Assembly (NCBI GenBank): GCA_022508445.1
Contig: JAFLVG010000005.1
Span: 1-64,000 of the forward strand
Direction of reading: 5' to 3'
DNA length: 64,000 nt
Origin: Clostridiales bacterium
GTDB taxonomy: Bacteria > Bacillota > Clostridia > Christensenellales > Pumilibacteraceae
Below the pieces are notes generated by a model. The model saw only the letters and a list, made by a program, of their open reading frames with translations. It was not told the DNA's origin and made no database searches. Both the position numbers and the translations under genes were made by a program. Positions 576-61,900 of this stretch are shown here, piece after piece (within the stretch, counting starts at the first letter, position 1; each line of letters begins with the position of its first letter).

Positions 576-604
576 TTGACACGGCATAAAATAGATGATA
601 TACT
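576..604 (+). promoter_or_regulatory. sigma-A promoter TTGACA-N17-TATACT for the SipW-like peptidase
   Basis: -35 TTGACA 576-581, 17-nt spacer, -10 TATACT 599-604. Confidence 0.8.
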
Positions 605-613
605 AAACACGAT

Positions 614-2206
614 ATGGCGGAAACGGTTGCACAAAAGGACGCGGAAACTGTCGCGCCGAAAAAGAAAAAAAGCAAAGTGGGGAAAGCGTTTAGAATAGGT
701 GGCGTAATTTTTTTGATCGTCATTCTTTTGGTTTTGATTCTGAACGCGCTCTTGACCATGTTCAAGGACGATTATTATACGACCTTCGGTAATTATCGTC
801 TTTTCTCTATTGTGTCAGATTCAATGGAGGATACAATCCCCAAGGGCAGTATGATTGTGGACAAAAAGCCCAAGAGCGAAGCGGACATCAAGGTCGGCAC
901 CATCATAACGTTCAAGACCAAGAACGGTAAAGAAACCGTGTTGCTCACGCACCGCGTCGTCGCGATAGGCACCGATAGCGACGGTAAAACGGTGTATACG
1001 ACAAAAGGCGACAATGCGAACGGCAACGACTCGTTCAAGCCCCATTTCTCGGATGTCGTGGGCGTATATATCGGCAAGAAATGCGGCTTTTTCGGCTCGT
1101 TCTTCGGCTTTATACAATCATCAATCGGCGTAAGCGTGCTAATCTTGGCGCTGTTCATAATCGTTGTCGCTTGGTTGTTCGTATGGTATGTGGATTACAG
1201 CGACCGTAAAAAGAAACTGCAAACGGCGGCGCTCAAAAAGAGCGCGGAAGCGCTGTCGGAAGTCAATCTGCGCTACGACAACGTGTGCGCTATAACCGCG
1301 GTCATGGACGTTCTCGACATGGTAACCGACGAGAGCGAAAAACGCGCGGACGAGAAAGCAAAGGAAGAACGGCTCAACGAGTTTCTCAAAGCCGAAAGTT
1401 TCGAACTCCCCAAAACTCCCGAAACAGCGGCAATGCTCGATTCAATGCCGGCACCCGATACGCCGGGCGCGCTTGCCGCGGCGCTTTCGACCGGCGCAAG
1501 CCTTCGCCAGGCCGAGGACGGGCAAACGCTTGTTCTGACCACTCTGTCCGGCGACAAAAACATATTGCTTACACCGGTACAGACCGCAGACGGCATCATA
1601 CTTTGCAGACAAGGCGTAAGACTGCGCAGCGATCTCGCGCCCAATATAGAAGACGTCGGCGTCACGAGCATGCCTGCGTCGCCCGAGTTCTTCGAGGGCA
1701 AACCGCTCGAAAAGAACGTCGAGTATCCAGAACTGCCTCAACCGGCAAAAGCGCTCGGACCGGAAGCCTTGCTCGGCGCAGGTGCGCAAGCGCCCGATAA
1801 GGACAGACAGTTGCTTGCGAGCGGTGACAACTCGCATAGCGCGTATGCGAAGTACAGAGAATATTCGGCACAGCTCGAACTTCGTCAGGCCGAACAGTTA
1901 AGCGATTTGCTTGCCGGCACCGCTCCGTTGACGCCCGAAGAGCAAGTCAAAGTCGCGGAGTATAAAGCCGCGCACAAAAAACAGCCCAAGCCCAAAAAAC
2001 CGAGAACGGAAGAGCAGAAGGCAAAGGCAAAGGCGGCGGCGGAACGCAAATTGGCGGAGCAAGAAGAATTGCTCAATTCGCTCAGTCCGAGCGACAGAGA
2101 ACTGTATCTGACCGAACAGAAGCTCGCCAAATCCCGCTCCGCGGCAATCCGCAAGCTGAAACGCATAGAATCGGACAGAAAGATTTTGGAAAGAATAGAA
2201 GAGTAA
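614..2206 (+). CDS. SipW/ER-type signal peptidase I (S26B-like) with long cytoplasmic C-terminal extension
   Basis: TM segment, SDSMEDTIPKGSM catalytic Ser box (S70), 'LTHRVV' with His113 where bacterial Lys-type enzymes have Lys, GDNANGNDSF box, second TM near residues 165-192, then a ~330-aa charged tail. Confidence 0.85.
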   Translation: MAETVAQKDAETVAPKKKKSKVGKAFRIGGVIFLIVILLVLILNALLTMFKDDYYTTFGNYRLFSIVSDSMEDTIPKGSMIVDKKPKSEADIKVGTIITFKTKNGKETVLLTHRVVAIGTDSDGKTVYTTKGDNANGNDSFKPHFSDVVGVYIGKKCGFFGSFFGFIQSSIGVSVLILALFIIVVAWLFVWYVDYSDRKKKLQTAALKKSAEALSEVNLRYDNVCAITAVMDVLDMVTDESEKRADEKAKEERLNEFLKAESFELPKTPETAAMLDSMPAPDTPGALAAALSTGASLRQAEDGQTLVLTTLSGDKNILLTPVQTADGIILCRQGVRLRSDLAPNIEDVGVTSMPASPEFFEGKPLEKNVEYPELPQPAKALGPEALLGAGAQAPDKDRQLLASGDNSHSAYAKYREYSAQLELRQAEQLSDLLAGTAPLTPEEQVKVAEYKAAHKKQPKPKKPRTEEQKAKAKAAAERKLAEQEELLNSLSPSDRELYLTEQKLAKSRSAAIRKLKRIESDRKILERIEE

Positions 2207-2217
2207 TAAAACGAATC

Positions 2218-2248
2218 AAAAAAGCACGGCACGTCGTGCTTTTTTTGC
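2218..2248 (+). terminator. Rho-independent terminator
   Basis: aaagcacg-gcacgt-cgtgcttttttt following the peptidase stop. Confidence 0.75.
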
Positions 2249-2367
2249 ATTGACGTGCGAGTTTCAACCACCACTAATCATTCTGTCCGGAGCGCGTCAG
2301 TGCGTTTTTTGCCCGTCGGAGAAATCAAGGCGTAGCCGTACACTTTATCACGCGGTGCAAGCGTCCG

Positions 2368-2394
2368 GATCCCTCGACTGCGATCGGGATGACA
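2368..2394 (+). repeat. dispersed intergenic repeat GATCCCTCGACTGCGATCGGGATGACA
   Basis: Same core (gatccctcgactgc-ctcgggatga) occurs in either orientation near 5957, 7657 and 12394. Confidence 0.65.
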
Positions 2395-2448
2395 GGATAA
2401 CGTTGCCTTTTTGCGGCTAATTTTCCGCAAACTTTTTTAAAATAGGTA

Positions 2449-2477
2449 TTGACAAGTGAGCATACTTGCTATATAAT
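2449..2477 (+). promoter_or_regulatory. sigma-A promoter TTGACA-N17-TATAAT
   Basis: Perfect consensus -35 (2449-2454) and -10 (2472-2477). Confidence 0.85.
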
Positions 2478-2518
2478 GAATATACATGTAAACAGGCTAA
2501 TGGGAATGATGGGGGAAG

Positions 2519-5302
2519 ATGGAACGCACGTGTCGTCTTAAAACTGTTATATTAGCGACAATTGTTTGCGTGGTAATGCTTATTGCCGCGGCTTTTTCCG
2601 TGTCATACGCCAAGTGGAATGCAACAGAAAGTGCCGAAATCGAAGTCAATGATAGCGTTGTCGGGCAGTTTTATGTTGATTATCCCGCACCGACTTACGA
2701 CTATCATATAACAGTTGTATTTAGTGATAAGAAAACATACGAAGCCTACATCACTTGCAAGGAAACCTATGTTAATATATGGCTTTACAATACAGCTAAC
2801 GGCGATAAGAATTACACTGGCGGTACTTGGCCGGGGTTAAAACTCGAAAAAGAAAACATTATAAGGGTAAGCGACGTTAGCTCTACTAACCGTAGCGGGT
2901 TTAAATTGAACTTTTCATTCAATTCATCAGCTTCTACGCAAACGACGGATTTACTTTTCAATAATGTATTTAAAGACGCATTTTCAACTGTTACCTTGAC
3001 AAAAACGGGTACCGGGAAAAATGATGTGACATTTACATCCACGGCTCAAACATCATCTCCGGTAGAACAGACGGTGCGCACAGTAACCGCTACAGGAACA
3101 AATGCTTATCACAATTATGTAAGTGTTTCGCGCATAGGCGGAAAGGGCGCGACTATAGCGTATATCAACTTTGGCGTAACTTCGACGAACGACCTTGATA
3201 AATCGATCGAAAGTTTTTCTGTTACTCGCACACTCACAGACGCAAACGGCAATCCCCAAGCCGGCTCGACAGAGGCAGTCAAAGTATATAACGATCCCAC
3301 AGGAAAATCATTAGACGAAATTAATTATATTGATGGATCAAAAGATACAGACCCCGGCGTAAAAGACAACAATAATGTCATGCCTAACTATGTACTTAAC
3401 GGTACATATATTATGCTGTATTTCAACACAGGCGCAAACCAATACTATGCGCTTGATGTGGTTATAGAAACACAGTCATTAGTGACCTTCACGCTGACCG
3501 CTACCGTTACCGATGTTGACAAGCGTAACAGGTTCCAGGATGGATACGGATATCCTTACGGCTATTATTTGGGCGGCGAATTCAGCGGCGTAAATATGTG
3601 GGAACCTCGAAGAGCCGCGCGACTCACAGCGGCCCATACCGTTGAAAACGACTTTAAGAATTTATCGTATGTGGATGACGGCGTAACGGTTTATCAAGAC
3701 GTGCCAAAGTATATAGACGTGTCCATAGATATAGAGCTTGCTGCCGCAAACGACACGCTCAAACTGTATCGTGTTGGCTCGGACGGCAAGTACTCAGGAG
3801 GTGAAAAACCCTCACTGTGGTTTATTCCGAGAAATATATACAAGAACTATTCCGGCGGTGCAGGTGCTGACGGTACCGACCTCTTTAATAAGGATATGAA
3901 TATTATTATTCGCACTCCCGGTATTTACAGGCTTAGGTTTGTCGGCAATATTCAATACAGGGATAGAGACGTTAACGGCAACACAAGCAAGAGCAACGGC
4001 GTATTTGCCTATGACCGTGAAGATAATGTGTTCATGTCGGAAGACCAATATAATGCGCTCTCTACAAGCCAAAAAAATTCGACAATAAAAGACGAGAGCC
4101 GCGGAGTTTCCGAATTGCGCTATGTCACACTCGGCAACTGGAACGGCGTTGTTGAATATCTTTACGTTACAAGATTAAATGACAGCTCTACATTCTCCGA
4201 AGTTAACGTAACATTCGATCCGGACGGAGGCACTATTTCCGGCGTAACAGACTGGACGGAAAAAGTCACATGGGGTAGTACATTAAATAGCACGGGTATT
4301 ATAAGCAAAACGCCTACGCGCACAGACGGCAAGACTTTTGACGGATGGTATGATTCTAATAACGTTAAATACACCAAGGACACGGTTATAGCTCCGTCTA
4401 CAAGCACGCTTACATTAACCGCGAAGTACAAAGACGCATCAAAAATATATACAATCACGTTTAACGCAAACGGAGGTTCGGTGAGCCCGACATCGAGTCA
4501 AACAGGTGCCGACGGTAAGCTTACGTCTTTGCCTACTCCCACACGAGATTATTATACATTTGACGGTTGGTATCCTTCGACAACTGGTGGCACTAAAATT
4601 ACGACTGATAAGATTTATGATGGTGATACAGAGATATACGCACGTTGGACGGCAAGATACGTTATGGTAAACGGCAACACCGTAACTGATCTATCAGGTA
4701 GCGGTTCTACTTACAGTGCATCTCAGAAATATTTCTCGACGAATACAACTATTTATTTCTATTACGGCGATAGTAAGTTTACTTTGACAAGACAAACGCA
4801 GGCCTCTACAATTACAGTTTACACTAATTACGTAACGACTGTTTCGGCCGGATGGTACAAATTCACGTTATCAAGCGTTAACACTAGCACCATGAAGGCT
4901 ACGGTCAAGTCTGAATTTACGGTTGGCACATCGTCTTCTGTTGGCACGGGTAAAGTTACGGTAGAAGTAAACGGCAACTGGGGCGGCGGAGGCGGCGGTA
5001 CTTGGTCCGGACGTGCCGTGGCTAGTGGCATATCGAGTGGCACATATACACTGTCTTTCTATATTCCTAAATCAACCCAGTTTAAGATACACTCTTATGG
5101 TGGCAATACAGAAGGTTGGTATGGATATAATTCAGGAAAGCATAGCGGACTTAATCTATGGGAGTACGGCAGTGGAGGTAACTGGTGGAACGGCGATAAT
5201 GGTGGTATTTATACTTTTAAAGTAACGATAGACAGCACAGGTAATACAAGCGATTTGGAATTCATCGGGTTTGTTGCAACCACTAGTGTTTCGGATAGTT
5301 AA
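2519..5302 (+). CDS. secreted InlB (Listeria-Bacteroides) repeat protein with SipW-type signal peptide and C-terminal CBM-like region
   Basis: N-term ...AAAFSVSYAKWNATESAEIEV; repeats 'VTFDPDGGTISG...TFDGWYDSNNVKY' and 'ITFNANGGSVSP...TFDGWYPSTTGGTKI...IYARW'; starch-binding-like C-terminus 'TIYFYYGDSKF...AGWYKFTL'. Confidence 0.8.
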   Translation: MERTCRLKTVILATIVCVVMLIAAAFSVSYAKWNATESAEIEVNDSVVGQFYVDYPAPTYDYHITVVFSDKKTYEAYITCKETYVNIWLYNTANGDKNYTGGTWPGLKLEKENIIRVSDVSSTNRSGFKLNFSFNSSASTQTTDLLFNNVFKDAFSTVTLTKTGTGKNDVTFTSTAQTSSPVEQTVRTVTATGTNAYHNYVSVSRIGGKGATIAYINFGVTSTNDLDKSIESFSVTRTLTDANGNPQAGSTEAVKVYNDPTGKSLDEINYIDGSKDTDPGVKDNNNVMPNYVLNGTYIMLYFNTGANQYYALDVVIETQSLVTFTLTATVTDVDKRNRFQDGYGYPYGYYLGGEFSGVNMWEPRRAARLTAAHTVENDFKNLSYVDDGVTVYQDVPKYIDVSIDIELAAANDTLKLYRVGSDGKYSGGEKPSLWFIPRNIYKNYSGGAGADGTDLFNKDMNIIIRTPGIYRLRFVGNIQYRDRDVNGNTSKSNGVFAYDREDNVFMSEDQYNALSTSQKNSTIKDESRGVSELRYVTLGNWNGVVEYLYVTRLNDSSTFSEVNVTFDPDGGTISGVTDWTEKVTWGSTLNSTGIISKTPTRTDGKTFDGWYDSNNVKYTKDTVIAPSTSTLTLTAKYKDASKIYTITFNANGGSVSPTSSQTGADGKLTSLPTPTRDYYTFDGWYPSTTGGTKITTDKIYDGDTEIYARWTARYVMVNGNTVTDLSGSGSTYSASQKYFSTNTTIYFYYGDSKFTLTRQTQASTITVYTNYVTTVSAGWYKFTLSSVNTSTMKATVKSEFTVGTSSSVGTGKVTVEVNGNWGGGGGGTWSGRAVASGISSGTYTLSFYIPKSTQFKIHSYGGNTEGWYGYNSGKHSGLNLWEYGSGGNWWNGDNGGIYTFKVTIDSTGNTSDLEFIGFVATTSVSDS

Positions 5303-5411
5303 CCCAATCGCAAAGCTGTAAAAAACGTGGTTTCCATCTCGTAAATCCAGTGCACATTAAATAATAGCAAACCAACAAACAACACTTCTCCCAAAGGAGT
5401 ATGACGAAATC

Positions 5412-5939
5412 TTGAAACGTTCAGCCAAAATCTTAATAGTCGCGCTGGCAATAGCCATTGTATTCGGAATTGGTACAGTGTCTTTTGCCAAGTGGACGGT
5501 CGCGAGTTCTTCCACTGCTACGGCTGAGGGTCCTACGGGCAAGGTAAACACCGTCGGCAATGTTGTTGTTACGGTTACGAGTGGCGGCTCGGGTTCGTCA
5601 ACAAACAAAAATATAAAAATGAACAAACTGCTCCCATACGACAATAACGACATACAAGGTACCAAATATTGGCAGTTTTCTGTTTCTGTTACCGGCAATG
5701 CCGGAGATGTAAATGTCACCTTAACGGGTGCGATAGATTGCGACACTTCGGTTGCTAAGCTTTACTTCTCACAAACCGCACCGGGCGCTACTGCTTCAAC
5801 CAACGAGCTTCCTAACGGCACGGATAAGTCGATTACTTTATCCAATAATCAAGCCACTGTGTACGTCTATATGATAGCTTACAGCGTAGCCGCAATGAAT
5901 ACCGATATATCGCTTACATTCACCGCAACTGCCGCATAA
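5412..5939 (+). CDS. small secreted SipW-substrate-like (TasA/camelysin-like) protein 1
   Basis: N-term KRSAKILIVALAIAIVFGIGTVSFAKWTVASSS, same design as the next two genes; start codon is TTG, preceded by GGAG. Confidence 0.7.
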   Translation: MKRSAKILIVALAIAIVFGIGTVSFAKWTVASSSTATAEGPTGKVNTVGNVVVTVTSGGSGSSTNKNIKMNKLLPYDNNDIQGTKYWQFSVSVTGNAGDVNVTLTGAIDCDTSVAKLYFSQTAPGATASTNELPNGTDKSITLSNNQATVYVYMIAYSVAAMNTDISLTFTATAA

Positions 5940-5956
5940 AGCACCACCGTTTTTTA

Positions 5957-5984
5957 TCATCCCGAGTGCAGTCGAGGGATCTCC
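5957..5984 (-). repeat. dispersed intergenic repeat (TCATCCCGAGTGCAGTCGAGGGATCTCC)
   Basis: Reverse complement of the element at 2368. Confidence 0.6.
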
Positions 5985-6085
5985 ACCTTAACGGCGAAAG
6001 CCAACACAACGGTTTTAATGGGTTCATGACCCAATAAAATAAAAATTAAAAAATAAAAAAATTTCTTAAAAGGAGAAAACAAATC

Positions 6086-6643
6086 ATGAAAAAGTCAATC
6101 AAAGCTCTTATCGTCGCGGCATCGGTCGCCGCAGTCGCAGGCATCGGCGCAGTCTCGTTCGCAAAGTGGGAAGCAGGCAACGCCGCCACTAAAACAGCTA
6201 CGGGTAATACTGGCTCTATCAACACAATCGGAACCTTGACGGTCACACCTACAAGCGCTTCCGGCAGTGTTGCTGACACGATAACGATGAATGCCTTGTA
6301 CCCCGTAGACCAAGGCGGCACTTATCTTACATACTGGGAGTTTGACATTGAAGTAACGGGTGAGGGCGAGCAAACCTTAACAGTTCAAGCTACTTATTCG
6401 GCAGGCACAAGTGGCAAAGCACAAGGCACAGGCGTTATATACTATGCCAAATCTGCTCCTCAGGGCGCTACTGTCGCCGGCGCACAGGATATTTCATCGG
6501 CGCAGACAGTTGATTTGCAAAAGGGTGATAATAAATATACGGCGAAAGTATACATCTACTTTACAAATACCGCAGAAACTTTGGATATGATGGGTGGAAG
6601 CATTACGGTGACATTCACTGCGTCCGCTAAAACTACTGCCTAA
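6086..6643 (+). CDS. small secreted SipW-substrate-like (TasA/camelysin-like) protein 2
   Basis: MKKSIKALIVAASVAAVAGIGAVSFAKWEAGN; AAGGAG ribosome-binding site. Confidence 0.8.
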   Translation: MKKSIKALIVAASVAAVAGIGAVSFAKWEAGNAATKTATGNTGSINTIGTLTVTPTSASGSVADTITMNALYPVDQGGTYLTYWEFDIEVTGEGEQTLTVQATYSAGTSGKAQGTGVIYYAKSAPQGATVAGAQDISSAQTVDLQKGDNKYTAKVYIYFTNTAETLDMMGGSITVTFTASAKTTA

Positions 6644-6788
6644 ATCTCACACACTCACTCACACGAAAGAAAAATTAAGTAATAGTGTTTCGATTTCATA
6701 TCGTTACATAAGTTTTTAATGCCACGCGGCAGGGCGCGTCGGCTTAAAATAAAAATTTAAATTTTCTTATAAGGAGAAAGTAAAAATC

Positions 6789-7349
6789 ATGAAAAAGAAA
6801 GTAAAAGCCCTCGTTGTTGCGGCTTCCGTTGCCGCAATTGCAGGCATCGGCGCAGTTTCGTTCGCAAAATGGGATGCAGGCTCGAAAAACGTACAGTCAA
6901 CAACGGGTAACGAACTCGGTACCGTATCCGTTTTAAAATTCGGCGAAACAACTATTCAAAACATAACCGGATTAAAGCCTCTGGATCAGGATGCGTCAAT
7001 AACGGCAAGTAATTATGTGAAAGTAGAATTCGACATTGTGGCGTCGGAAGGCTATGGATTTACAGATTTCAAACTTACCGTCGGTGTCAGTGCGATAAGT
7101 ATGACATCTTCTAAATTGACCGGCGACAATAATACGAAAGATAGCGGTATATTTGTCAGCAAAACTGCCCCTAATGCTTTGGCTGACACTAAACAAGATT
7201 CGTATGAGCTTACATATACGATTGGTACCGACGCGTCTTCCGGAAAATATGCGCTTTATGTGTGGTTGCAGTCTGATGATATAGGGGATATGGGGAAGAC
7301 ATTCACCCTTACATACACTCTCTCTGACGGCTCTTCTGCCAAAGTCTAA
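6789..7349 (+). CDS. small secreted SipW-substrate-like (TasA/camelysin-like) protein 3
   Basis: MKKKVKALVVAASVAAIAGIGAVSFAKWDAGS, near-identical signal region and 5' UTR to the previous gene. Confidence 0.8.
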   Translation: MKKKVKALVVAASVAAIAGIGAVSFAKWDAGSKNVQSTTGNELGTVSVLKFGETTIQNITGLKPLDQDASITASNYVKVEFDIVASEGYGFTDFKLTVGVSAISMTSSKLTGDNNTKDSGIFVSKTAPNALADTKQDSYELTYTIGTDASSGKYALYVWLQSDDIGDMGKTFTLTYTLSDGSSAKV

Positions 7350-7496
7350 TTCCATCCATACAAAAGCCGATTTCATCTTTTAATACTCCAATCTGTGATA
7401 CCGATACATAAAGGTATAAATAATTGAATACATGCTTGTTTGCGCCTGTGGGCGTAACAGCGAAATATGCGCTTGCCCTGCGCGCAAAACAATCAT

Positions 7497-7535
7497 CGAG
7501 CCGACCGCGAAAGCGGTCGGCTCGATTTATTATCC
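7497..7535 (+). terminator. terminator-like perfect hairpin
   Basis: cgagccgaccgc-gaaa-gcggtcggctcg followed by atttattat. Confidence 0.55.
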
Positions 7536-29515: not shown

Positions 29516-32425
29516 ATGAAGAAGGCAAAATTAGTAGTTGCTACTTTGGCTGCTACCGTATTTACCGCGTCTGCCGGTGCGCTTGTCGCATGCGGCGAAC
29601 TCGATGAATTCGCCGAAAAAGCAGGCGTTTATGAAATCACGTTCAACGCCAACGGAGGCATGTATGAGAGTGGGACGACGATAAAAGTTCCCACCGTTGA
29701 CGGCAGAGTGTTGGTCGAACCCGACAGACCGACGAATGAGGATCAGAAATTCAACGGGTATACCGTAAATCAAGACGGATCGGGAACCAAAATCACATTC
29801 GGTGAGAATGGGTATAAGTTTACCAAGAGCATAACGGTGTATGCTCAATGGACGACGGAACCCCAAGGCGACCAATCGGGCGTTTATGAAATCACATACG
29901 ACGCTAACGGCGGTATATTGATAGGCAACAATACGATGCAGACGGCAAACGGTCAGCTCGCTTGGTTGCTTACCAAAAACAATGTTTATTACGCAGGACA
30001 TACCTTTGTCGGTTGGTACACGGCAAGAGAGGGCGGAGACGAAGTCACCACCGATTACGTGTTCGAGAGGGACACGACTATTTTCGCGCACTGGACGGTC
30101 GACGGAAGCGGTAATACCGATCCCGATCCCGAAAATCCCGACCCCAACAATCCGAATAATCCAGATCCCGATAATCCCGACGACAACAAGGATCCCAATC
30201 CCACGACGACCGAAGCGGCGATGACTGTCGGCGGTGTTGAAAAAACGGCGACCTGGCGCAAAAAACCTGCGGCGGATTTGGATACCGCAAACGGACAGAC
30301 CGGCGAATATTATGCGGCCGAAGTAACGCTCTCGGCAGGTGACGAAATCGCATTCAAGGTAAACGGCACGCCCGTTAAACTTTGGAGAAAGTACGACGCC
30401 GACGCAACACAGGACGCGAGAAATAAAATCGAATACGTAGAAGACACGAGCAAAGCGAGCGAATCGCTTGTGATTTCCGCAAGCGGCACGTACACCGTTT
30501 CCATAACGAACTGGGATAATGCCGCTGAATGGGTTGTTTGGGTAGGCGAGCCCAACTACACCGGGCCGGAAATTCCCGACGTTCCCGGAACGGGCGCCGT
30601 CATGAAAGTGGACGGTGTTGTATCCAATGTCAAGTTTACCAAAAAGCCCGAAAGCGAATTGCAAACGCAGTACGGTCAAAAAGCCGAGTATTACGCGGTC
30701 GACGTAGAACTGTATCTCGGCGATACACTGTCGTTCACGGTAGACGGCGAGGCGATTAAGCTTTGGGCGGACACAACCGACGAGAATAACAAGGTGAATA
30801 CGGTTACGGAGTCTGCCGATTCGCTTACAGTAAAAGCAGCCGGCACGTACACCGTTTCCATTAAATATTACAACGACGATCCGCACTGGGTTGTTTGGGT
30901 AGGCGAACCCAACTACACCGAACCCGATCCCGACATTCCTTCCGGAACTGCGGAATTCTATCTGTACGCCACGGTAGGCAACGACTATAAGTGGTCGGTG
31001 GAAACGGGATACGCGTTCAAACAAATCGAACCCGACGATAATGAAAAAGCATACGACAACCCCGTCGTAAAGAAATATATCGTGGAAAACGTAGCGTTCT
31101 CAGCCGGCGACGAGGCCAAGATTTTCTATACGAAGGGAAGCGACGACGCTCAAAAATGGAGCTACAACCACTATGAGTACGAATGCTTGGGTACAAATTG
31201 CGAATTTGACGGAAATAATTTGAACATACTCAAAACCGGCAAATTCACATTCTACCTCAAAATATACGCTAACGGTACCGACAGCGTCTGGGTACATTAC
31301 TCGGCAGGTTCGCCCGATGTCGATCCGCCCACGCCCGGCTCGAAAGCGATGATGACGGCCAACGGCGAAGGCACAGAAATGACCGACAACAGCTCGTATA
31401 TCGATCCGGAAGAGAATCCGACGTTGACAATCGAGTACATGCTCACAGGTCAGAAGTTTGAGGCTCAAACCACATTGCAGTTCAAGGTCAGCGACAGCGC
31501 AGTAGAGATGTGGGTAGAGTGCAAGGACGGACTTGTAATTGACGTTGAAGGTCAGAAAGTGACCGGAACGGGAAGCAAGGGCGCGCGCGGCATGAGCATC
31601 ACGGTAGCCGCCGGCACTTACGATTTCTATCTCCAATACTACACCGACGGCGGCGCAGACAATCAAGGCGGTTGGCGCTTGTGGGTAGCCGGCGAATCGT
31701 CGGGCACTCCCGAAACCCCCGACGTTCCAGATACCGAAGTCAAAACAGGTATTGTGGTGGCTGGCAAGACGACCGAGCTCGTTGTAAATGCAGATGCGTC
31801 AGGAGAAAAACTTAAAGTCGAATATTGGCTTGGCGCAAACAAAACGATTCATCTTAACAAAGGCGCTGAGGCTACTTTCAAGGTTGACGGAAAAACCGTT
31901 TCTTTGGCGAATGTCGAGGGATACGGCATTAAATCAAACGGCAGCGGCGGCATTGAAGTTACAGAAGCCGGCGACTTCGTGTTCTATCTTAAAAATTGGT
32001 CGGATACCGGCAACTGGACGGTGTACGGTACTAACGGCAACGAACCGGAGTCGCAAGAAGGATCAATCGTTGTTAAATTCAATGACGCAACCGTAACATT
32101 TAAATTCGAAGTTCCTTCGTGGGCGACATCCGATGCGTATTTATATTTGTGGAACGGCACAAGTAATGCGCTTAATAAGTGGGAGGCAAAAGACGAGTAT
32201 TCTTTCACAGGTAAGACGTTAACAATCAATGCAAGTGTGTCCGGAGTTAAATTCATCGTATGGTTTAAAGAGGGTTCTACAACGAAGCAAACTTTCGATA
32301 TAACCAATCAGACGCTTAGAGACGGTTACACTTATACTATTACTATGGGCAACTGGGGCACTAATGAAGAGGGCACCGGAAATAAATTTGAAGGCAAAGT
32401 TACAGAAACAAAAACGACAGCATAA
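29516..32425 (+). CDS. surface lipoprotein with InlB repeats, DPN-rich linker and tandem CBM/starch-binding-like repeats
   Basis: Lipobox GALVACG; 'ITFNANGGMYESG', 'ITYDANGGILIG...FVGWYTAREGGDEVTTDYVF...IFAHW'; repeated modules ending 'WVVWVGEPNYT'. Confidence 0.82.
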   Translation: MKKAKLVVATLAATVFTASAGALVACGELDEFAEKAGVYEITFNANGGMYESGTTIKVPTVDGRVLVEPDRPTNEDQKFNGYTVNQDGSGTKITFGENGYKFTKSITVYAQWTTEPQGDQSGVYEITYDANGGILIGNNTMQTANGQLAWLLTKNNVYYAGHTFVGWYTAREGGDEVTTDYVFERDTTIFAHWTVDGSGNTDPDPENPDPNNPNNPDPDNPDDNKDPNPTTTEAAMTVGGVEKTATWRKKPAADLDTANGQTGEYYAAEVTLSAGDEIAFKVNGTPVKLWRKYDADATQDARNKIEYVEDTSKASESLVISASGTYTVSITNWDNAAEWVVWVGEPNYTGPEIPDVPGTGAVMKVDGVVSNVKFTKKPESELQTQYGQKAEYYAVDVELYLGDTLSFTVDGEAIKLWADTTDENNKVNTVTESADSLTVKAAGTYTVSIKYYNDDPHWVVWVGEPNYTEPDPDIPSGTAEFYLYATVGNDYKWSVETGYAFKQIEPDDNEKAYDNPVVKKYIVENVAFSAGDEAKIFYTKGSDDAQKWSYNHYEYECLGTNCEFDGNNLNILKTGKFTFYLKIYANGTDSVWVHYSAGSPDVDPPTPGSKAMMTANGEGTEMTDNSSYIDPEENPTLTIEYMLTGQKFEAQTTLQFKVSDSAVEMWVECKDGLVIDVEGQKVTGTGSKGARGMSITVAAGTYDFYLQYYTDGGADNQGGWRLWVAGESSGTPETPDVPDTEVKTGIVVAGKTTELVVNADASGEKLKVEYWLGANKTIHLNKGAEATFKVDGKTVSLANVEGYGIKSNGSGGIEVTEAGDFVFYLKNWSDTGNWTVYGTNGNEPESQEGSIVVKFNDATVTFKFEVPSWATSDAYLYLWNGTSNALNKWEAKDEYSFTGKTLTINASVSGVKFIVWFKEGSTTKQTFDITNQTLRDGYTYTITMGNWGTNEEGTGNKFEGKVTETKTTA

Positions 32426-32643: not shown

Positions 32644-33660
32644 ATGAAAAAGTCGAAGTTGTTTATTTCTGTTCTTGCGGCAGCGCTGTTTATGTTGTTT
32701 TCGCTTGGGCTTGCCGCTTGCTCCAAAGAACCCGCAGGGTATGTGGACGACGTAGGCCCCGGTGGTCCCGGAGGCGGTGGCGGCGGATCGTACACCATCA
32801 CGTTCGATCCCAACGGCGGCACGATAACCGGCGATAATACGAGAATGACCATGTCTGACGGCAAGCTCGCGTCGCTTCCCGGACGTAGCGTCGTAAAGTA
32901 TACAAACCACACCTTTGACGGTTGGTACACGGCAAAAACAGGCGGAACCGAAGTTACTACATCCACTGTGTTTACCAAGAACGACACAGTTTATGCGCAT
33001 TGGACGGAGAATATTCAATCGTCAAGCGGATATACTATAACGTTCCATGCCAATAACGGAACATCCCAATCCTCGCAATTAACGACTAACGCGAGCGGCG
33101 TATTGACCGAGACCGCACCCACGTTCAGTTACGATGGATACGATTTCGACGGCTGGTTCACTGACGCGACGGGCGGAAGCCTTGTGTCGGCAACCAACAA
33201 CATCACAAAGACGTTTACCGCAGATTCGGACCTGTACGCGCAATGGACGAGAAAAAGCACGGGCGGTTTGAACAGCGTTGTCACGTTCGTATTCTCGACC
33301 GGTTGGAATGACAGTATAAACGACGTGCGTATCCATATGTGGAATGATGAAAACGGTGCATATACCGAGTTCAAATACGCAGATTTTTCTGAATACGGCG
33401 GCGATCTGATGACCGATGAAACAGGCGGCGGCAAAACGTTTAAATATGAGCTTACGCTGGACGAAAGAGGTCCGGTGACGGGATTTAATATCACGTTTAG
33501 ACAAAACGGCTCGTCGTGGAAGGTTGCACAATGCAACGATTACGCCGGAACGTTTACAGGCGGTAATACTTACAGCTTTACGTTCGGCACTTGGATTACC
33601 GACGCTCCGAATTTCAATTGGAGTCAAGACGTTGTTCCTTTCACGCTATTGCAAGCATAA
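32644..33660 (+). CDS. surface lipoprotein with three InlB-type repeats and C-terminal CBM-like domain
   Basis: Lipobox GLAACS; 'ITFDPNGGTITG...TFDGWYTAKTGGTEVTTSTVF...VYAHW', 'ITFHANNGTSQSS...DFDGWFTDATGGSLV...LYAQW'. Confidence 0.82.
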   Translation: MKKSKLFISVLAAALFMLFSLGLAACSKEPAGYVDDVGPGGPGGGGGGSYTITFDPNGGTITGDNTRMTMSDGKLASLPGRSVVKYTNHTFDGWYTAKTGGTEVTTSTVFTKNDTVYAHWTENIQSSSGYTITFHANNGTSQSSQLTTNASGVLTETAPTFSYDGYDFDGWFTDATGGSLVSATNNITKTFTADSDLYAQWTRKSTGGLNSVVTFVFSTGWNDSINDVRIHMWNDENGAYTEFKYADFSEYGGDLMTDETGGGKTFKYELTLDERGPVTGFNITFRQNGSSWKVAQCNDYAGTFTGGNTYSFTFGTWITDAPNFNWSQDVVPFTLLQA

Positions 33661-42579: not shown

Positions 42580-44580
42580 ATGGATAACGTAAGGTATAAT
42601 ATTTCGCCGTGCGAACGAAACGAGGTGGCGGCGTTTATCGATAAGATAGACGTGGGTGTGTTTGTGCCTAACGGCGCAGTCAAAGCAACAGAGCGTTCGC
42701 ATTACGACAGATATTCATTCTTGGCAAGCGATAACAGAATAGCTATCGTTTACGACACTTCCGCGAGTATAGTTTCAATTACAGGTCGATCTGACTATGC
42801 TAGGCAGCTGCTCGATTTATTCAATCCGAAAAACAAAACCGTCAAGCGCTCGACTGTTCCGGCGCAAGGCAGCACTCCGGTAAAGCCGATAGCAAAACAG
42901 CCGTTCGTGCCGACGGAGATAATAAGAAAACACGTAGGTGAGGAGTCAAGTACTCGGGCAAAACTTTTTGTCGAGCCCGATCAATTGATGCGACGCAGTC
43001 AGTATAAGCCGGTAGCCACCGTTTTCGCATCATCGAAGGGTGCGTTGATTTCCACCGACGAAATATATCCGCCGCAAACGGTACAAAACAAGCAACAAAG
43101 ACAACAGCATAATCCTCCACCCGTAGAGGACGAGTACAGCGGAGATATCATTTATCCGCCGCAAACAGTAAAGAAACGCACACTTCCGTCTTACGGCGAA
43201 ACGAGCGGCGGCTTCCAAAGCATGTTTTTAAATCAATCTGCGCCGCGCGTGTCAAGGCAGAGCACCGAACATAGTGCCGACAACGACAAGCAATTCGGAA
43301 TAGCAATATCGGCAGGCGGAAAATCGCCCGGCGGTAACGACAAGCCCAGGCGCGCGGTCATATCGTTCGGCTCGGAAGAAGACGAGGATGACGACGGAAA
43401 ACTCAAAATCAATACTCGCGGTCAAAGCATTTTCAAGCAATCCCGGCTCGACGAGAGGACATACCAAAGTGTCGCACAAAGCGACAACGTTCAGCCGACA
43501 AAACGTAAGCGCGGCAGACCGCCAAAGGTGCAGAAAGCGCAAAACAACTATGTGGGCGGAAATGCTGAACAATCGGCGCAATCACTATATAATAATATTC
43601 CGTCGATGCCTAATGAGCAGAGCTCGCACTCACAAGATGTCTTTGACAATCAGCCTGTAAAACGCAAGCGCGGCAGACCGTCCAAGACCGATTATCGGAA
43701 TGCGCGCAACGAAAATGCCGAGCAAATCGAAAAGCAGTCGCAGTTCGAATATAAAAACGGATATTCGGTCAAGAACTATCCGCCCGAGGCATTGAGCGGA
43801 GCAATCAAGCGGCTTCGTGAATACGGAAAAACCGTAATCGCCGACGGAACGGAATTTGCCGGCACGCCGCAAGAAGTCAAGTCGTACAGCGTAACGGACG
43901 CCGCAGGACAAAAAGTGCTACTTAGGTATGCTACAAAGCGCATGACATTACAGCTACAAGGCAAGCGTTCGGACTTATTCGGAGAGGTCATGTCTCAGGT
44001 CAGCCACGACAGCGACTACTCGTCGGCGCTTGAAAACTATGTCGAGAACACGGGTGCTAATGCGGTCAAAAAGGTTTCGGACGTACAGAACGAGCTAAAA
44101 AAGAGATTGCCTAACGCATTCGAGTTTTTGTCCGAGCAATCGCGCATAGATTTTTCATACGGTATACACGACTTCGGCCAGACGAATTTGCATCTTTTGG
44201 ATTATTCGGTGTTGCTTGTTCCCGCATTCAGAGGCTTGGAGCGGTTTGTATTCGACCTGCAACGCGCCGAGGACATCAAGGTCAAGATGATAGGTCAAGC
44301 GTTTGACAAGGACGACAGCGGCAAATATGTGCTTAAAAGCGGATATTGTCAGAGAATAGGCAGCGTAATATACGCCGAGGTGCTTGTAGCACTCTATACC
44401 GAATACTTCTCGCAAAGAAACTTTTTCGCACACTCGGACAATACCGATAACAACATCTCACGGTCGTTACCCGAACGTGCAACGGCGCTACACATTTTCA
44501 ATCATCTGCTCGACGTAGTGGAATACAATGCAAAAAAGCTCAAAGAAATTGGCTTTACCTTAACTGATAATAACAACTGA
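42580..44580 (+). CDS. RnlA/RNase LS-like HEPN ribonuclease toxin-type protein with AT-hook-bearing linker
   Basis: C-terminal 'HLLDYSVLLVPAFRGLERFVFDL...FDKDDSGKYVLKSGY...YTEYFSQRNFFAHSD' resembles RnlA (DYCMLLYPELRTIEGVL...YFDK..QYILKPQF...FFNVERHSLFHM, as recalled); HEPN Rx4H = R613..H618; AT-hook-like KRKRGRPPK and KRKRGRPSK in linker. Confidence 0.65.
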   Translation: MDNVRYNISPCERNEVAAFIDKIDVGVFVPNGAVKATERSHYDRYSFLASDNRIAIVYDTSASIVSITGRSDYARQLLDLFNPKNKTVKRSTVPAQGSTPVKPIAKQPFVPTEIIRKHVGEESSTRAKLFVEPDQLMRRSQYKPVATVFASSKGALISTDEIYPPQTVQNKQQRQQHNPPPVEDEYSGDIIYPPQTVKKRTLPSYGETSGGFQSMFLNQSAPRVSRQSTEHSADNDKQFGIAISAGGKSPGGNDKPRRAVISFGSEEDEDDDGKLKINTRGQSIFKQSRLDERTYQSVAQSDNVQPTKRKRGRPPKVQKAQNNYVGGNAEQSAQSLYNNIPSMPNEQSSHSQDVFDNQPVKRKRGRPSKTDYRNARNENAEQIEKQSQFEYKNGYSVKNYPPEALSGAIKRLREYGKTVIADGTEFAGTPQEVKSYSVTDAAGQKVLLRYATKRMTLQLQGKRSDLFGEVMSQVSHDSDYSSALENYVENTGANAVKKVSDVQNELKKRLPNAFEFLSEQSRIDFSYGIHDFGQTNLHLLDYSVLLVPAFRGLERFVFDLQRAEDIKVKMIGQAFDKDDSGKYVLKSGYCQRIGSVIYAEVLVALYTEYFSQRNFFAHSDNTDNNISRSLPERATALHIFNHLLDVVEYNAKKLKEIGFTLTDNNN

Positions 44581-55984: not shown

Positions 55985-58900
55985 ATGACAAAACATACGG
56001 ATAAAACTAACGTCATAAGACTTGGCAAGGGGCGTCGCGCATTCATACTGATTGCGTCGATTTTCACTGCTATTGCGGTAGCCGTCGCTTGCGCATTGTG
56101 CTTTGACACATCGAAGCCCGTTTCGGTAGGGGATGTTGAATCAAGTGTTTCCACATCTGCAACGACCTACTCCAATCTGACGGGCGATAAGACTGCCGCA
56201 GGTGCTCTAAACAACGGCGATATTATCAATTATACATATAACGGCGGTGTGTATTCGATTAAATTGCCCAAAGGCACATTCAAGTTCGAAGTTTGGGGTG
56301 CGCAAGGCGGGTATTACGATACCGGTTGCTTGGGCGGCAAGGGTGGTTACACCTATATATCCTCTTACGAAGTAACGGCCACGGCTGGTCAATATATATA
56401 TATAGTTGTCGGAAGCCAAGGCGGCAACGGATCAAGCGGAGCAAAGGCCGGCGGTTATAACGGCGGCGGAAGCACGAACATAGGCAACAGCGGCGGTGGC
56501 GGCGGCGGTGCAACGCACATGGCGCTTGCGTCCGGCTTGCTTAAAAACGTTTCCAGCTCTAACGTATTGCTCGTCGGCGGCGGTGGCGGCGGATCCACTA
56601 CCAGTGCGCACAGCGGCACATACGGTCAAGGCGGCTACGGCGGCGGCGGAAATGCTTCCGGCGGCGCGTCGAGCGGCGGCTGGATTGACGGTGCCGGCTA
56701 CCAAGCGAAGGGTGGCACAACTTCTGCCGGCGGCGCGGGTGGCAAAGGCGCTACGACGACATCATGCACATACGTCATCGGCGGCAACGGCTCTTACGGT
56801 CAGGGCGGCGTCAGCAATGCGAGCTACGAAGCAGGCGGCGGCGGTGGCGGCGGCTACTACGGCGGCGGCGGTGGCGGCGGCGACAACAACAGTGCCGGCG
56901 CAGACGGAAGAACGGGCGGCGGCGGCGGCTCCGGTTATATCAAATCCGGATATTCGGGCAGCGGCACAAGCAACAGTCAATCCGGCAACGGCACGGCGAG
57001 AATTACCGTTCTCTCCGTCAACCAAGCTCCTGCGGCAAAGACCACAGCGTCGAGCACGCTAAAAAGCAACACCACGTATTACCGTGGCGCGCAAACTATT
57101 TCGTTCACTCCCGACGATATAGCGACCGACCCCGACGCTACAAAGACAACGCTGTATTTCACAAACGGAACTGCGTCCAACCTCGACACTTTCCAGAATG
57201 CGAATACGAAAAACCAGAATCTTTGGATTAACTCGGCTTGTACGACTCTTGCGACCAAGTATGTACAATGGACGTGTGTATCCAACCGTCAGATAAACAT
57301 CACAAATATACTCTTGTATCCGCGCAAGGGCGCTGACGGCTGCGCCACAGACGGTATTTTGATTTTGTACACAAAGGTGCGCGACAACTTCGGATCTTCG
57401 ACGGCTCGCGGTTGGTCGATTATACCGATTTATATAAGGGTGGGCGACAGAGCCTTGACGGCAAAAACAGATAAGCTTTTGACCAAAACGTATACGCGTT
57501 CCGACAATGTTCAATACACTTACAGATACGGAGATCCCACGCACACCGGAACTTCCGATGCAAGTAAGAATTACGACTATATCAACAACCCTAACTCCAT
57601 ATACAATCCCAACGGCTCGGGCAAAACCGTATTCTTGCCCAAGTCGATAGCGCCTACCGATTCGGCAGGATACACGATATACGCGAGCGACCTCTATACC
57701 GACGCCGATACGTCGCACGATAAGGTCGCATTCAAAACGGTCGCGTCCACGTCGTATACTACATATTACACCATAACGTATAATTCGAATTCCGATTATG
57801 CGTCCGGCTTGGTGCCGTCGATTACAATCAAACCGACGGGCGTCCGTCCGAGCGGCGCCATTTATGTGGCGGCGACTATAACGGCACAGACGAGCGAAAC
57901 AGGCAGCAAGGTAGGAATCGGCGCGGCCAATACGGCGGTCACGCTTGTTTTCCGCATGTCCAACACGCGCCCGTATTTCGCGTCGACGCAGGCATTGCCG
58001 AGCACAGTCAATCTGACAGAGCCGCTTGTAACCCTCGCTCCCGGCGGCGTAGCCACCGTAAACCTCAAATCCATGGTTTACGATATGGACGACTCTACTC
58101 TTTCGAAGCATACGTTCGCACAGACGGTCAACGACGTTGTAATACCGACAGGCGAATACATCCAAGTCGACATGTCCAATGTGCGCATTCCGCTCAAAAC
58201 CAATGTAGGGAGCAACTACGCGGCGTACGACAACGACTCAAACAAGGCAAGTACGTCATACAAGACAGGGCAAGGAACTGTTCAGACAACGTTTAAACAA
58301 GGACTGATTGCGCCTGTCGGCAGTGCGAATGCCTCGACGGCAAACGTGCTGTACAGCTTTGACAACAGTCAGACAATACGCTTTACCGCGCGTGCGGCAA
58401 CGCAGTATCAGTATTCGGATAAGGCAAACTCCACACATTCGCGCAAGGGCGACTTCTACATACTCGTGCGCGTAATAGATCCGTCGGACACTGCCGATAC
58501 GGGTATTTGGTTCCCCATTGCGATAAAGGTCAATTCATCGGCTCCGACTACAATCACGCCCTCGGCCGCTAACTTCACGCTTGAATTTACGCAGTATACC
58601 GACGGCGTTGAGGATCAACTCAATCCAAGCGACGCGAAAAAGGGCAGAGACGCTATACAAAATCCCGAAAGCGGTATCGTTATAACGCCTATAAGCTACA
58701 CGGACGCCAACGGCGTGCTTCGCGGCATAGGAACTACAAACTCATCGTTCGGCACAAACGGCAATCACGCAAGTCCGTTTGCGGTCGATCCCGACGGGTT
58801 TATGTACCCGAGTGGCACCACAACCGCTTCGCCTATACTTCCGTTAAACGATTTGGCGTTGCTTTACGGAACGAGCGACTTCAATAACATCAATATAGCT

Positions 58901-61900
58901 AACATCGTAAACCGCTACGATACCACGAGCTTCTTCGACATCTCCGTAGTAAGCCTTTACGCAGACCGTCAAGTGTTCAGTCAGCTCAATCTTTCTGATG
59001 CACAGCTCGCTGCTTTGGGCGTCAAGACATACAGCGACGGAAATGCAGGATATGAGTTCAAGGGTTTGCGTATAATTCCCAAACGTTCTACAAACGATGA
59101 GTTCTTCCAGATTGAGGTTAAGACTGTCGACACACGTGGCACGCAGGGGCTTGTTACCGTCTGCATTAAAGTGCTTAACCGCAGGATAGAGGCGCGTCGC
59201 GGAAGCTACGAGGGCAATAACGGAAACGAATCGACGGCGTACAGGATCAATCCGATTACGAACGTCGGCACATACACCAGAAATACAAACATCGGCGCGC
59301 TTGCCGTCAACTACACAATCGAATGCAACGACATTGTCAGACTTACGCCGTATGATTTCGCATACGATTTCGACGTAGATCCCGACAATAGCCAGCTCAA
59401 CCCCAGAGGCGGTGCGCTCAATACTAACCCCGCTGACAGCGGATTCCAAGAAGCCGCAAATTATATAAGAAAGCCTTACAATATCAAGCATACTTCGTCA
59501 CCGAGTGCGCTTGCTCAAAACACGAGCATAGTTTACGGACAACAGCTCACGTTTATCAACACAGGCAATATCATTGCCAATGCCGGGCAGTACAGCAACT
59601 ATATAAGTGTTGCAATGGGCAAATGCAAGGTAGGCAATACCGAGTATGAAATACCTTGCATCGAGATTGAAGGTCTTTCGCGTACCACATCTGCGATAGT
59701 CCAGCTTCGTTTTACGATAAGCGACGGCAGCACGACCATTAACTGTGTTATAACCGTAACGGTCAAAAACTCCGCTCCCACTCGTGTAAACAACAATGTT
59801 TATCAGCTTACCGCAGGTGTTAAGGACGGCTACACTAACTCGTTGGAATTGGCGGTAGACGAAATAGCCGTAGATAAGGACGGCGATATTCCGACGTTCG
59901 TCACCGATCCGGTCCATATCTATGCAAAGGTCGACAACGCTTACTACGAAGCACTCGACGCCGACATGAACGGCGTTGATATCGATTCGCCGCAAGCCGT
60001 CTACAAAATGTCCGACTATATTTATGTCTCGATTGCTAAAAACAGTTTGGGCTTGGACGTAGTGTATGTACGCGCGCTCTCTTCGACTGAGTTTTTCACC
60101 AGGCAGATTTATCTCGCAGTCAGGGTTAAGGACGGATTCCGCGCTCAACCCGAAGAGGTTACGCTTTATATACTCATAAACGTCATCAACTCAGAGCCTA
60201 CAATGGCGACGGACACGCTCGTCGTCGACAGCAATGGCAACTATTCTTGGATGATAGAGTGCGAGGATACCGAAAAGACGCTGTCGCGCTACATCGTCAA
60301 CAGCCGCGAGCTTTGCGAATCGCCGGCCATACCTGCGATAACCGCCAATAAGATTTGGTTGTTCGATGACGCCGACGGACAGCAAGAGGTCATACTCAAT
60401 CCGCTCTCGTGGATTAAGGATACCAACTATTCCGGTGCGCTTATCAGGAAAACAACGGCAAGCGTAATTACTTCCGAAATGTTCACATCGTCCACAGAGC
60501 CCACACTTAACGCCGGCGTAATTTACACTAAAACTTACACGTCCGGTGAAGATCAGTACTTAAATATCGAGCCCATATTCTTTGAGAAATCGTATAGCAA
60601 CGGCAGGGCTGTATTTACTCCATTGCCGCTCGACAGCGAGAAAGTCAAGACGAGCCAATATTGGGCGCTCAGAATTATAGACAAGGGAACCGGTACGAGC
60701 GACGCACTGCGTACTCAGATTGCTATCGCCGTCAAGGACGATCAACACAGTGCTACGCTGTATACAGCCGATAAATCGAAAGAAATCGAAGAGCATTCTT
60801 CGTCGCTTACGGTTCTCAATTTCTTCTACGGATACAAAATGCCGGGCGTTCTTGCGCTTCATAACTACTATCGTACCGACGGCAATGCAGAGGCTGCGAC
60901 TTCGGTTGTCGGTGGCAACGAGGAAGGAAAATTTGTTGTTGACAAGGACGGCGTAAGAGCGTATCAGTTCAAAAACAAAGCTATTCCGGGCACCGCAGAA
61001 GAGTTGCGCAACGCCACGTTTATCGATAATTTTAAATATCAATATTATGTCGATAAGCTCACTCGCGGAACGACGTCCGAAGCCACATACAAGCATTATC
61101 CTGTCAATGAAGGCAGTGCGTTCTATTACAGCCCGATTGAGGTCGGTGGCGTGTACGGCGGTGAAAAAGCGATTGTGCCTATCAGCTACATCGCGTTGCC
61201 TTCGTCTGCGAAAACAGGTATAACCGAGGACAGGGCGCATGTTACTTTCGCAAACGCTACGGCGAACACGAGTATGCTGAATAAAAACGGCAATAAGCTC
61301 AACGATAACGAATATTACAGCTGGTCGCAGGATAACGCGAACGACCGCAATGCCATATTCGAAAACCTCACGCTGTCTGATGGCATTCAGGTATGGACAG
61401 GGTGGAATCAAATAAGCCAAAACCCGTATATAGATATCAAATATGTGTCGAATACCAAGTTCCTCGGACCGCAAACCGGAGTTAACCGCTACCGCAACAG
61501 CAGCAGATTCGAGGTATCGGTTCAAACGGACAGCAACTCGCATTCGATAACATTTATCGACGCGAACGATAACAGCGGCAACAGCAACTGCCGCGAGGAT
61601 AAGTTCGGATTCGAGTTCGGCAAGAAGGATGGGGGCGAACGTCCGACCGGTTATCTTAAACTGACCGTCGCGCTCAAAACGACGACCAGTGCGGCGTCCG
61701 GCGACGATACGGATAGCGCTGTCGAGTACGTTGAGGTCGATATTAACCTCAAAAATACGTTCGCGAAGATCGTAGATGCGAGCGGTAGCGAGAAAGACAA
61801 GGGTTATGTGGATGATGAGTCGGTCAAAATGACGACGCGCGACTCTGTCGGCAAGACCGTTATCTTGAACGATTACAAAAACGGAGTCGATAACGCCAAG

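What the first reader, a model, noticed from the sequence alone, without database searches (positions are those of the whole stretch)
614..7349. SipW-type signal peptidase linked to four '(Y/F)AKW' substrates: candidate TasA-like fibre or matrix locus
The peptidase has Ser70 and His113 (THRVV) instead of a Ser/Lys dyad, as in B. subtilis SipW and ER signal peptidases. Downstream are one 927-aa InlB-repeat protein and three ~180-aa paralogues, all with a hydrophobic stretch ending in VS(Y/F)AKW followed by a small beta-rich secreted domain. Established: SipW processes TasA and TapA, which form biofilm fibres. Inference: the three small paralogues could be fibre subunits and the 927-aa protein an adhesive accessory. 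The combination with an InlB/CBM-like member appears unusual.
Basis: partly seen in the sequence, partly recalled or inferred. Interest (0 to 1): 0.65.

Follow-up and report, generated by a model that had tools for sequence, protein, structure and literature searches.

The report
SipW-type signal peptidase and fibre-like substrates
Mouse-gut Anaerocaecibacter bacteria carry a dedicated human-like signal peptidase next to proteins marked with a cleavage tag found nowhere else in the genome, which probably build an adhesive surface fibre; unusually, the peptidase also carries a strongly conserved internal domain that seems to have a job of its own.

Summary
Window 614-7349 encodes an ER-type (SEC11/SipW) signal peptidase (Ser70, His113, Asp139) followed by one 927-aa and three 175-186-aa proteins, all ending their signal in VS(F/Y)A|KW. 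That motif occurs exactly four times in the 1.78-Mb genome, all here. The host belongs to Anaerocaecibacter (mouse gut). Of 20 genus genomes, 14 have peptidase and small substrates on one contig, 13 of them within about 6 kb. Substrate signals are 69% identical, mature parts 27%. Trp at P2' is invariant, a position where ordinary SPase I tolerates aromatics poorly. The genome has no sortase and no PF12389 protein. The small proteins are modelled as beta-sandwiches whose best PDB matches are donor-strand pilins (FimG, PapE, CfaB) at low TM-score. So the TasA-like reading holds for peptidase logic and signal type; camelysin membership is not met and fibre formation is inference. Two additions: the peptidase's ~330-aa cytoplasmic extension has a core (263-376) that is its best conserved part, is found only in this genus, and stays constrained in one species that lost catalytic His/Asp, promoter and substrates; and sipW appears leaderless genus-wide. 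New variant of a known kind.

The parts
576..604 (+). sipW promoter TTGACA-17-TATACT; ATG lies 9 nt after the -10 box with no Shine-Dalgarno, implying a leaderless mRNA
   Evidence: same layout (7-10 nt) in 15 of 16 genus loci with a readable start, not in G009; only gene of the 64-kb window with a near-consensus promoter this close to an ATG
614..2206 (+). SipW/SEC11-type signal peptidase, 530 aa: TM1 ~25-50, ectodomain 52-170, TM2 ~171-195, cytoplasmic extension 200-530
   Evidence: TIGR02228 78 bits; SEC11A/C by sequence and fold
821..823 (+). Ser70 nucleophile codon
   Evidence: invariant in alignments A3 and A5
950..952 (+). His113 codon (replaces the Lys of bacterial SPase I)
   Evidence: aligned with the SEC11 His; Cys in G009 only
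1010..1030 (+). GD133...D139 box (catalytic Asp candidates)
   Evidence: aligned with the SEC11 GDN..D box; D139 lost in G009
1400..1741 (+). cyto2, residues 263-376: conserved cytoplasmic core of unknown function
   Evidence: 80% mean pairwise identity against 62% for the ectodomain; pN/pS 0.23; found only in this genus among 396 genomes of the order, always inside a SipW-length frame
1844..2203 (+). C-terminal Lys-rich helical region, residues 411-530
   Evidence: conserved in genus; predicted helical, pLDDT about 81-90
2218..2245 (.). hairpin terminator between sipW and the 927-aa gene
2449..2477 (+). consensus promoter TTGACA-17-TATAAT of the 927-aa gene
   Evidence: 12/12
2519..5302 (+). 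927-aa secreted InlB/List_Bact-repeat protein; signal ends VSYA|KW (predicted cleavage after A31, base 2611)
4313..4642 (+). two List_Bact (InlB B) repeats, residues 599-708
   Evidence: PF09479 and TIGR02543; InlB structures
5412..5939 (+). small substrate 1, 175 aa (TTG start), VSFA|KW
6086..6643 (+). small substrate 2, 185 aa, VSFA|KW; beta-sandwich model
   Evidence: (mean pLDDT 75, core mostly 85-94)
6789..7349 (+). small substrate 3, 186 aa, VSFA|KW
7495..7526 (.). strong 14-pair hairpin after the cluster (terminator-like on both strands)

Best explanation
This is a dedicated ER-type (SipW) signal-peptidase module for a sortase-independent surface fibre. The three small proteins and the 927-aa protein are exported by Sec with a shared signal that ends S-(F/Y)-A|x-W; the aromatic residues around the site, above all Trp at P2', reserve it for SipW over the ordinary Ser/Lys SPase I. 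[quoted passage not shown] The peptidase carries a ~330-aa cytoplasmic extension proposed to link export to a cytoplasmic partner or regulator. Shown: genes, motif uniqueness, linkage, residue conservation, ER-type catalytic residues, absence of sortase, selection on the extension. Inferred: cleavage by this enzyme, polymerisation, adhesion, role of the extension.
For: Four genome-wide motif matches, all here. In the genus 41 small and 12 large substrates all have Ala at P1 and Trp at P2' (Ala at P1 and an aromatic at P2' are built into that search, but A26 and W28 are also invariant in the small-family alignments). P2 is F/Y in all small ones. LepB cleaves poorly with an aromatic P2' or Trp at P2 (PMC10269814). 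Signal identity 69% against 27% for mature parts; signal more conserved in 99% of pairs. Peptidase and small genes share a contig in 14 of 20 genus genomes, 13 within ~6 kb; second copies in G002, G003, G016 are again adjacent to a small gene. SEC11 similarity by sequence and fold; third fold hit is S. pyogenes SipA, described as essential for pilus polymerisation. No sortase in the genome. AF2 beta-sandwich with a low-confidence N-terminus up to residue ~41; the first eight PDB matches are all chaperone-usher pilins (FimG, PapE, CfaB; prob 0.97-1.00), several solved with donor-strand peptides. Experimental parallels: TasA donor-strand fibres (PMC9674648), C. perfringens sipW-bsaA filaments (PMC7395162), archaeal threads with type-1-pilin-like fold (PMC9715654).
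Against: Foldseek TM-scores of the pilin matches are 0.31-0.47 and no match passes E 0.001, so pilin similarity is a hint, not a fold assignment. The putative donor segment has low pLDDT and no multimer could be modelled. The P3-P1 pattern S-x-A also fits ordinary SPase I. No fibre or biofilm phenotype is reported for this genus in the searchable library. The adhesin role of the 927-aa protein rests on repeats alone.
Confidence: 0.58

Rival explanations
1. Dedicated SipW export without a fibre: the small proteins are monomeric surface or secreted binding proteins and the large protein an independent adhesin; the shared signal only guarantees processing by SipW.
For: No assembly factor or TapA-like protein was identified; pilin TM-scores are low; mature domains diverge quickly (27% identity), as expected also for exposed binding proteins.
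Against: The experimentally studied SipW substrate sets met here (TasA/TapA, CalY, BsaA) form or assist filaments (PMC9674648, PMC13082335, PMC7395162); 1-3 small paralogues plus one large partner recur across the genus.
Confidence: 0.25
2. The peptidase works mainly as a membrane chaperone or assembly factor, as proposed for streptococcal SipA, and the substrates stay anchored by an uncleaved signal helix.
For: S. pyogenes SipA is the third-best fold match.
Against: Ser, His and Asp are kept in all genus peptidases with a readable ectodomain except G009, which also lacks substrates; the cleavage-site residues are the most conserved part of the substrates.
Confidence: 0.07
3. The primary conserved role of the 614-2206 protein is cytoplasmic (regulator or scaffold); the peptidase activity is a lineage-variable second function.
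For: cyto2 is the most conserved part (80% against 62%) and stays at pN/pS 0.22 in G009, where ectodomain pN/pS rises from 0.35 to 0.63. B. subtilis SipW is bifunctional, with a second role in surface-adhered biofilms (cited in PMC4238804).
Against: Single genome (G009); the extension was not found without SipW in the order sample; no domain assignment.
Confidence: 0.25

Closest known systems
C. perfringens sipW-bsaABCRSD (BsaA pellicle filaments; PMC7395162)
   Same: Clostridial SipW next to several secreted substrates (BsaA about 23 kDa); sortase-independent polymer; accessory secreted proteins.
   Different: No two-component system seen in this cluster; TIGR04090 (SipW-exported family IV, which from memory is the clostridial one) has no match in this genome; a large InlB-repeat substrate is added; the peptidase has a ~330-aa cytoplasmic extension.
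B. subtilis tapA-sipW-tasA and B. cereus sipW-tasA/calY
   Same: ER-type Ser/His peptidase dedicated to a few matrix proteins; aromatic P2' residue; short N-terminal segment then an L-x-P-x-D motif at similar spacing.
   Different: No PF12389 match; best fold matches are type-1 pilins; three divergent small subunits here; no TapA or SinR-type arrangement seen.
Archaeal thread filament (Saci_0406, PMC9715654)
   Same: Type-1-pilin-like beta-rich subunit, Sec signal cleaved by an SPase I, donor-strand assembly without chaperone-usher.
   Different: No sequence relation tested; archaeal; glycosylated.
S. pyogenes SipA
   Same: Signal-peptidase fold serving a surface pilus (fold hit).
   Different: SipA belongs to a sortase pilus (own knowledge); this genome has no sortase.

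Membership tests
SipW/ER-type signal peptidase (TIGR02228) | Family model above curated cut-off | tested here: met
   78.2 bits against cut-off 51.85
SipW/ER-type signal peptidase (TIGR02228) | Ser-His(-Asp) instead of Ser-Lys | tested here: met
   S70, H113, D133/D139 aligned with SEC11A/C; conserved in genus except G009
SipW/ER-type signal peptidase (TIGR02228) | Cleaves the adjacent substrates | not testable with these tools
   needs cleavage mapping
Bacillus SipW equivalog (NF046067) | 190-bit cut-off, ~190-aa protein | tested here: not met
   74.7 bits; protein is 530 aa
Camelysin/TasA (PF12389) | PF12389 match in the small substrates | tested here: not met
   not among the families matched by the 27 small proteins as listed; none in the genome
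Camelysin/TasA (PF12389) | TasA/CalY fold | tested here: inconclusive
   beta-sandwich model; top PDB matches are pilins, TapA 6hqc at rank 41, TasA not among the 50 listed
Camelysin/TasA (PF12389) | Homologous N-terminal mature segment | tested here: inconclusive
   mature-only profile score reached by 1 of 150 column shuffles in both local and global mode, hhalign probability about 1%
SipW-exported substrate families (TIGR04089 / TIGR04090) | Match above the curated 60-bit cut-off | tested here: not met
   TIGR04089 hits 3 of 27, best E 4.8e-5 at 23.5 bits; TIGR04090 none in the genome
SipW-dependent substrates by signal logic | Aromatic residue at P2', shared signal, linkage to SipW | tested here: met
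   W28 invariant in alignments, 53 of 53 substrates; linkage
Donor-strand-assembled pili | Incomplete Ig-like subunit plus N-terminal donor strand | tested here: inconclusive
   matches to FimG/PapE/CfaB, low TM; no multimer modelled
Sortase-assembled pili | Sortase and LPXTG substrates | tested here: not met
   no PF04203 in the genome; no LPXTG in the window's 927-aa protein

The most novel reading that the evidence does not exclude
The genus-specific cytoplasmic domain of this SipW is an independently selected module, possibly a regulator or adaptor that reports on substrate processing, so the signal peptidase is a two-function transmembrane protein; in one species (G009) the protease half has degenerated while the cytoplasmic half persists.
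Probability: 0.4. Interest if true: 0.72.

Novelty: new variant of a known kind. Interest (0 to 1): 0.5.

Why it matters
If true, a mouse-gut genus builds sortase-free fibres by a dedicated human-like signal peptidase, extending the TasA/BsaA principle to a new lineage with a cultured representative (A. muris CLA-AA-M11). The conserved cytoplasmic domain would make the open question of a second, non-proteolytic role of SipW testable, with a natural pseudo-enzyme (G009) as comparison.

Tried and rejected
PF12389 and TIGR04089/TIGR04090 as families for the small proteins: not met. Sequence search of PDB with the small-protein profile: only a chance hit to a signal peptide. Canonical SPase I as the sole peptidase: a Ser/Lys enzyme exists elsewhere (C23), so SipW need not be the general enzyme. 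Fold search of the peptidase model: besides signal peptidases only small chromo/tudor-like barrel hits, and model pTM is 0.31, so no domain was assigned to the extension. Single-operon reading: rejected because of the hairpin after sipW and the consensus promoter before the 927-aa gene. Absence of sipW in G013: not accepted as real, since its large gene runs towards the contig start. One motif match in G009 (C19:266) lies in an ORF without an N-terminal hydrophobic stretch and was treated as chance.
Full report
What is there. The window lies at the start of contig C41 (114 kb) of a 1.78-Mb, 96% complete genome and opens inside a 5S rRNA gene (1-91). The five ORFs of the finding are confirmed at the stated coordinates. 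By a conserved-peptide scan the genus is Anaerocaecibacter (Pumilibacteraceae; named by the A. muris CLA-AA-M11 record, L088, which is G016 in the anonymous set).

Peptidase. 614-2206 matches TIGR02228 and, as a profile, human SEC11C and SEC11A. The AF2 model has SEC11A and SEC11C as first and second PDB matches and S. pyogenes SipA third. S70, H113 and D139 align with the ER-type catalytic residues. A second S26 peptidase in the genome (C23:174063) has the bacterial Ser/Lys pair, so this enzyme need not be the general signal peptidase.

Substrates. The VS(F/Y)AKW DNA pattern has four matches in the genome, all here; the small-protein profile finds only the three paralogues at significant E. 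Across the genus 41 small and 12 large proteins carry the site. That count used a pattern demanding Ala at P1 and an aromatic at P2', so the independent evidence for invariance is the alignments (A26 and W28 invariant) and the fact that P2' was Trp in all 53 although F and Y were allowed. Signals are 69% identical on average, mature parts 27%, the reverse of what is usual for secreted proteins (own knowledge). P2' aromatics and Trp at P2 hinder the Ser/Lys enzyme LepB (PMC10269814; none of 143 verified E. coli substrates had an aromatic P2'), and TasA, with Phe at P2', is cleaved by SipW.

Linkage. In 20 genus genomes the small family is present in 17 and the peptidase, at least in part, in 18. 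In 14 genomes both lie on one contig, 13 within about 6 kb and one (G006) about 20 kb apart; G007, G011 and G017 have them on different contigs, so linkage cannot be judged there. Gene order varies (peptidase first or last), and second copies in G002, G003 and G016 are again adjacent to a small gene. Outside these, three loci (L090-L092) show the same grouping with diverged members, and only two further genomes among 396 of the order carry weak small-family matches.

Fold of the small proteins. The model (27 sequences, mean pLDDT 75, core mostly 85-94) is a beta-sandwich; residues 8-28 and 35-41 are below 50. The first eight PDB matches are FimG, PapE and CfaB entries, several solved with donor-strand peptides, at prob 0.97-1.00 but E about 1e-3 to 1e-2 and TM 0.31-0.47. 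Columns 36 and 38 are mostly small hydrophobic, then Gly40, Gly43 and Ile/Val45; this is compatible with a donor strand but not proof. Camelysin/TasA homologues from other Bacillota align with the same layout (signal, aromatic P2', G-x-(L/I), L-x-P-x-D), at 93.7% hhalign probability with signals and only about 1% without; 1 of 150 column shuffles reaches the mature-only score.

Large protein. Two InlB B-repeats, no LPXTG, no sortase in the genome. Its relatives are 887-2040 aa in the genus (589 aa in L091) and most share the N-terminus and a stretch homologous to window residues ~180-720.

The cytoplasmic extension. Residues 200-530 follow TM2 and, by the Lys-rich N-terminus before TM1, face the cytoplasm (inference). 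Region 263-376 is the best conserved part (80% mean identity; ectodomain 62%). In the order sample it occurs only in this genus and always inside the SipW frame. In G009 (96% complete) the peptidase has H113 to Cys, GD to AD and no D139, the promoter is not found, and no small substrate is found. Ectodomain pN/pS rises from 0.35 to 0.63, TM1 from 0.46 to 0.73 and TM2 from 0.48 to 0.76, while 263-376 stays at 0.22. This points to a function independent of proteolysis. It is one genome, and Ser70 is kept. L090-L092 carry a different C-terminal domain, and L090 ends in an L15-like segment.

Promoters. sipW starts 9 nt after its -10 box without a Shine-Dalgarno; the layout (7-10 nt) recurs in 15 of 16 genus loci with a readable start, the exception being G009. 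L090 and L091, outside this group, show Shine-Dalgarno-like sequences, and none of L090-L092 has this promoter. No other gene in the window has a near-consensus promoter this close to an ATG. A leaderless mRNA is inferred, not shown.

Judgement. Dedicated processing by this SipW is very likely (about 0.85-0.9); assembly into a fibre is likely (about 0.6) on parallels with TasA, CalY and BsaA plus the pilin hint; the adhesin role of the 927-aa protein is plausible. The system is a new variant of SipW-dependent matrix modules, and the most novel element is the conserved cytoplasmic domain.

Noticed in passing
window 576-614; L073-L088: sipW seems to be transcribed from a near-perfect sigma-A promoter with the ATG 7-10 nt after the -10 box and no ribosome-binding site (leaderless), conserved across the genus and not found in G009.
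   Followed up: partly
L067:18078-19862 (G009), same gene in L087: SipW pseudo-enzyme: catalytic His and Asp lost, substrates absent, ectodomain and membrane parts relaxed, cytoplasmic domain still constrained.
   Followed up: yes
L090:9791-12286, L091:9893-11665, L092:2951-4672: SipW relatives with a different C-terminal cytoplasmic domain (motif around AKLIQ...ELLSYKKV...VRGKTLC); the L090 protein ends in a ribosomal protein L15-like segment (PF00828 1.8e-13; TIGR01071 5.7e-10, below cut-off).
   Followed up: partly
G002:C44 (L038), G003:C17 (L036), G016:C2:44140-45605 (L037/L122): Second, diverged SipW copy with its own adjacent small substrates in three genus members.
   Followed up: partly
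window 29516-32425, 32644-33660: Two further List_Bact-repeat proteins in the window (PF09479), whose signals lack the SipW motif.
   Followed up: no
window 55985-64000: ORF of at least 2672 aa running off the window, with an N-terminal hydrophobic stretch and a Gly-rich beginning: very large putative surface protein.
   Followed up: no
window 42580-44580: 666-aa protein with an RnlA-toxin DNA-binding-domain match (PF19034, 2.1e-7).
   Followed up: no
L080:1247-6820: Large SipW-type substrate with a sub-cut-off neuraminidase-model match (NF052328, 64.9 bits against 900), possibly through shared repeats or a carbohydrate-binding module.
   Followed up: no
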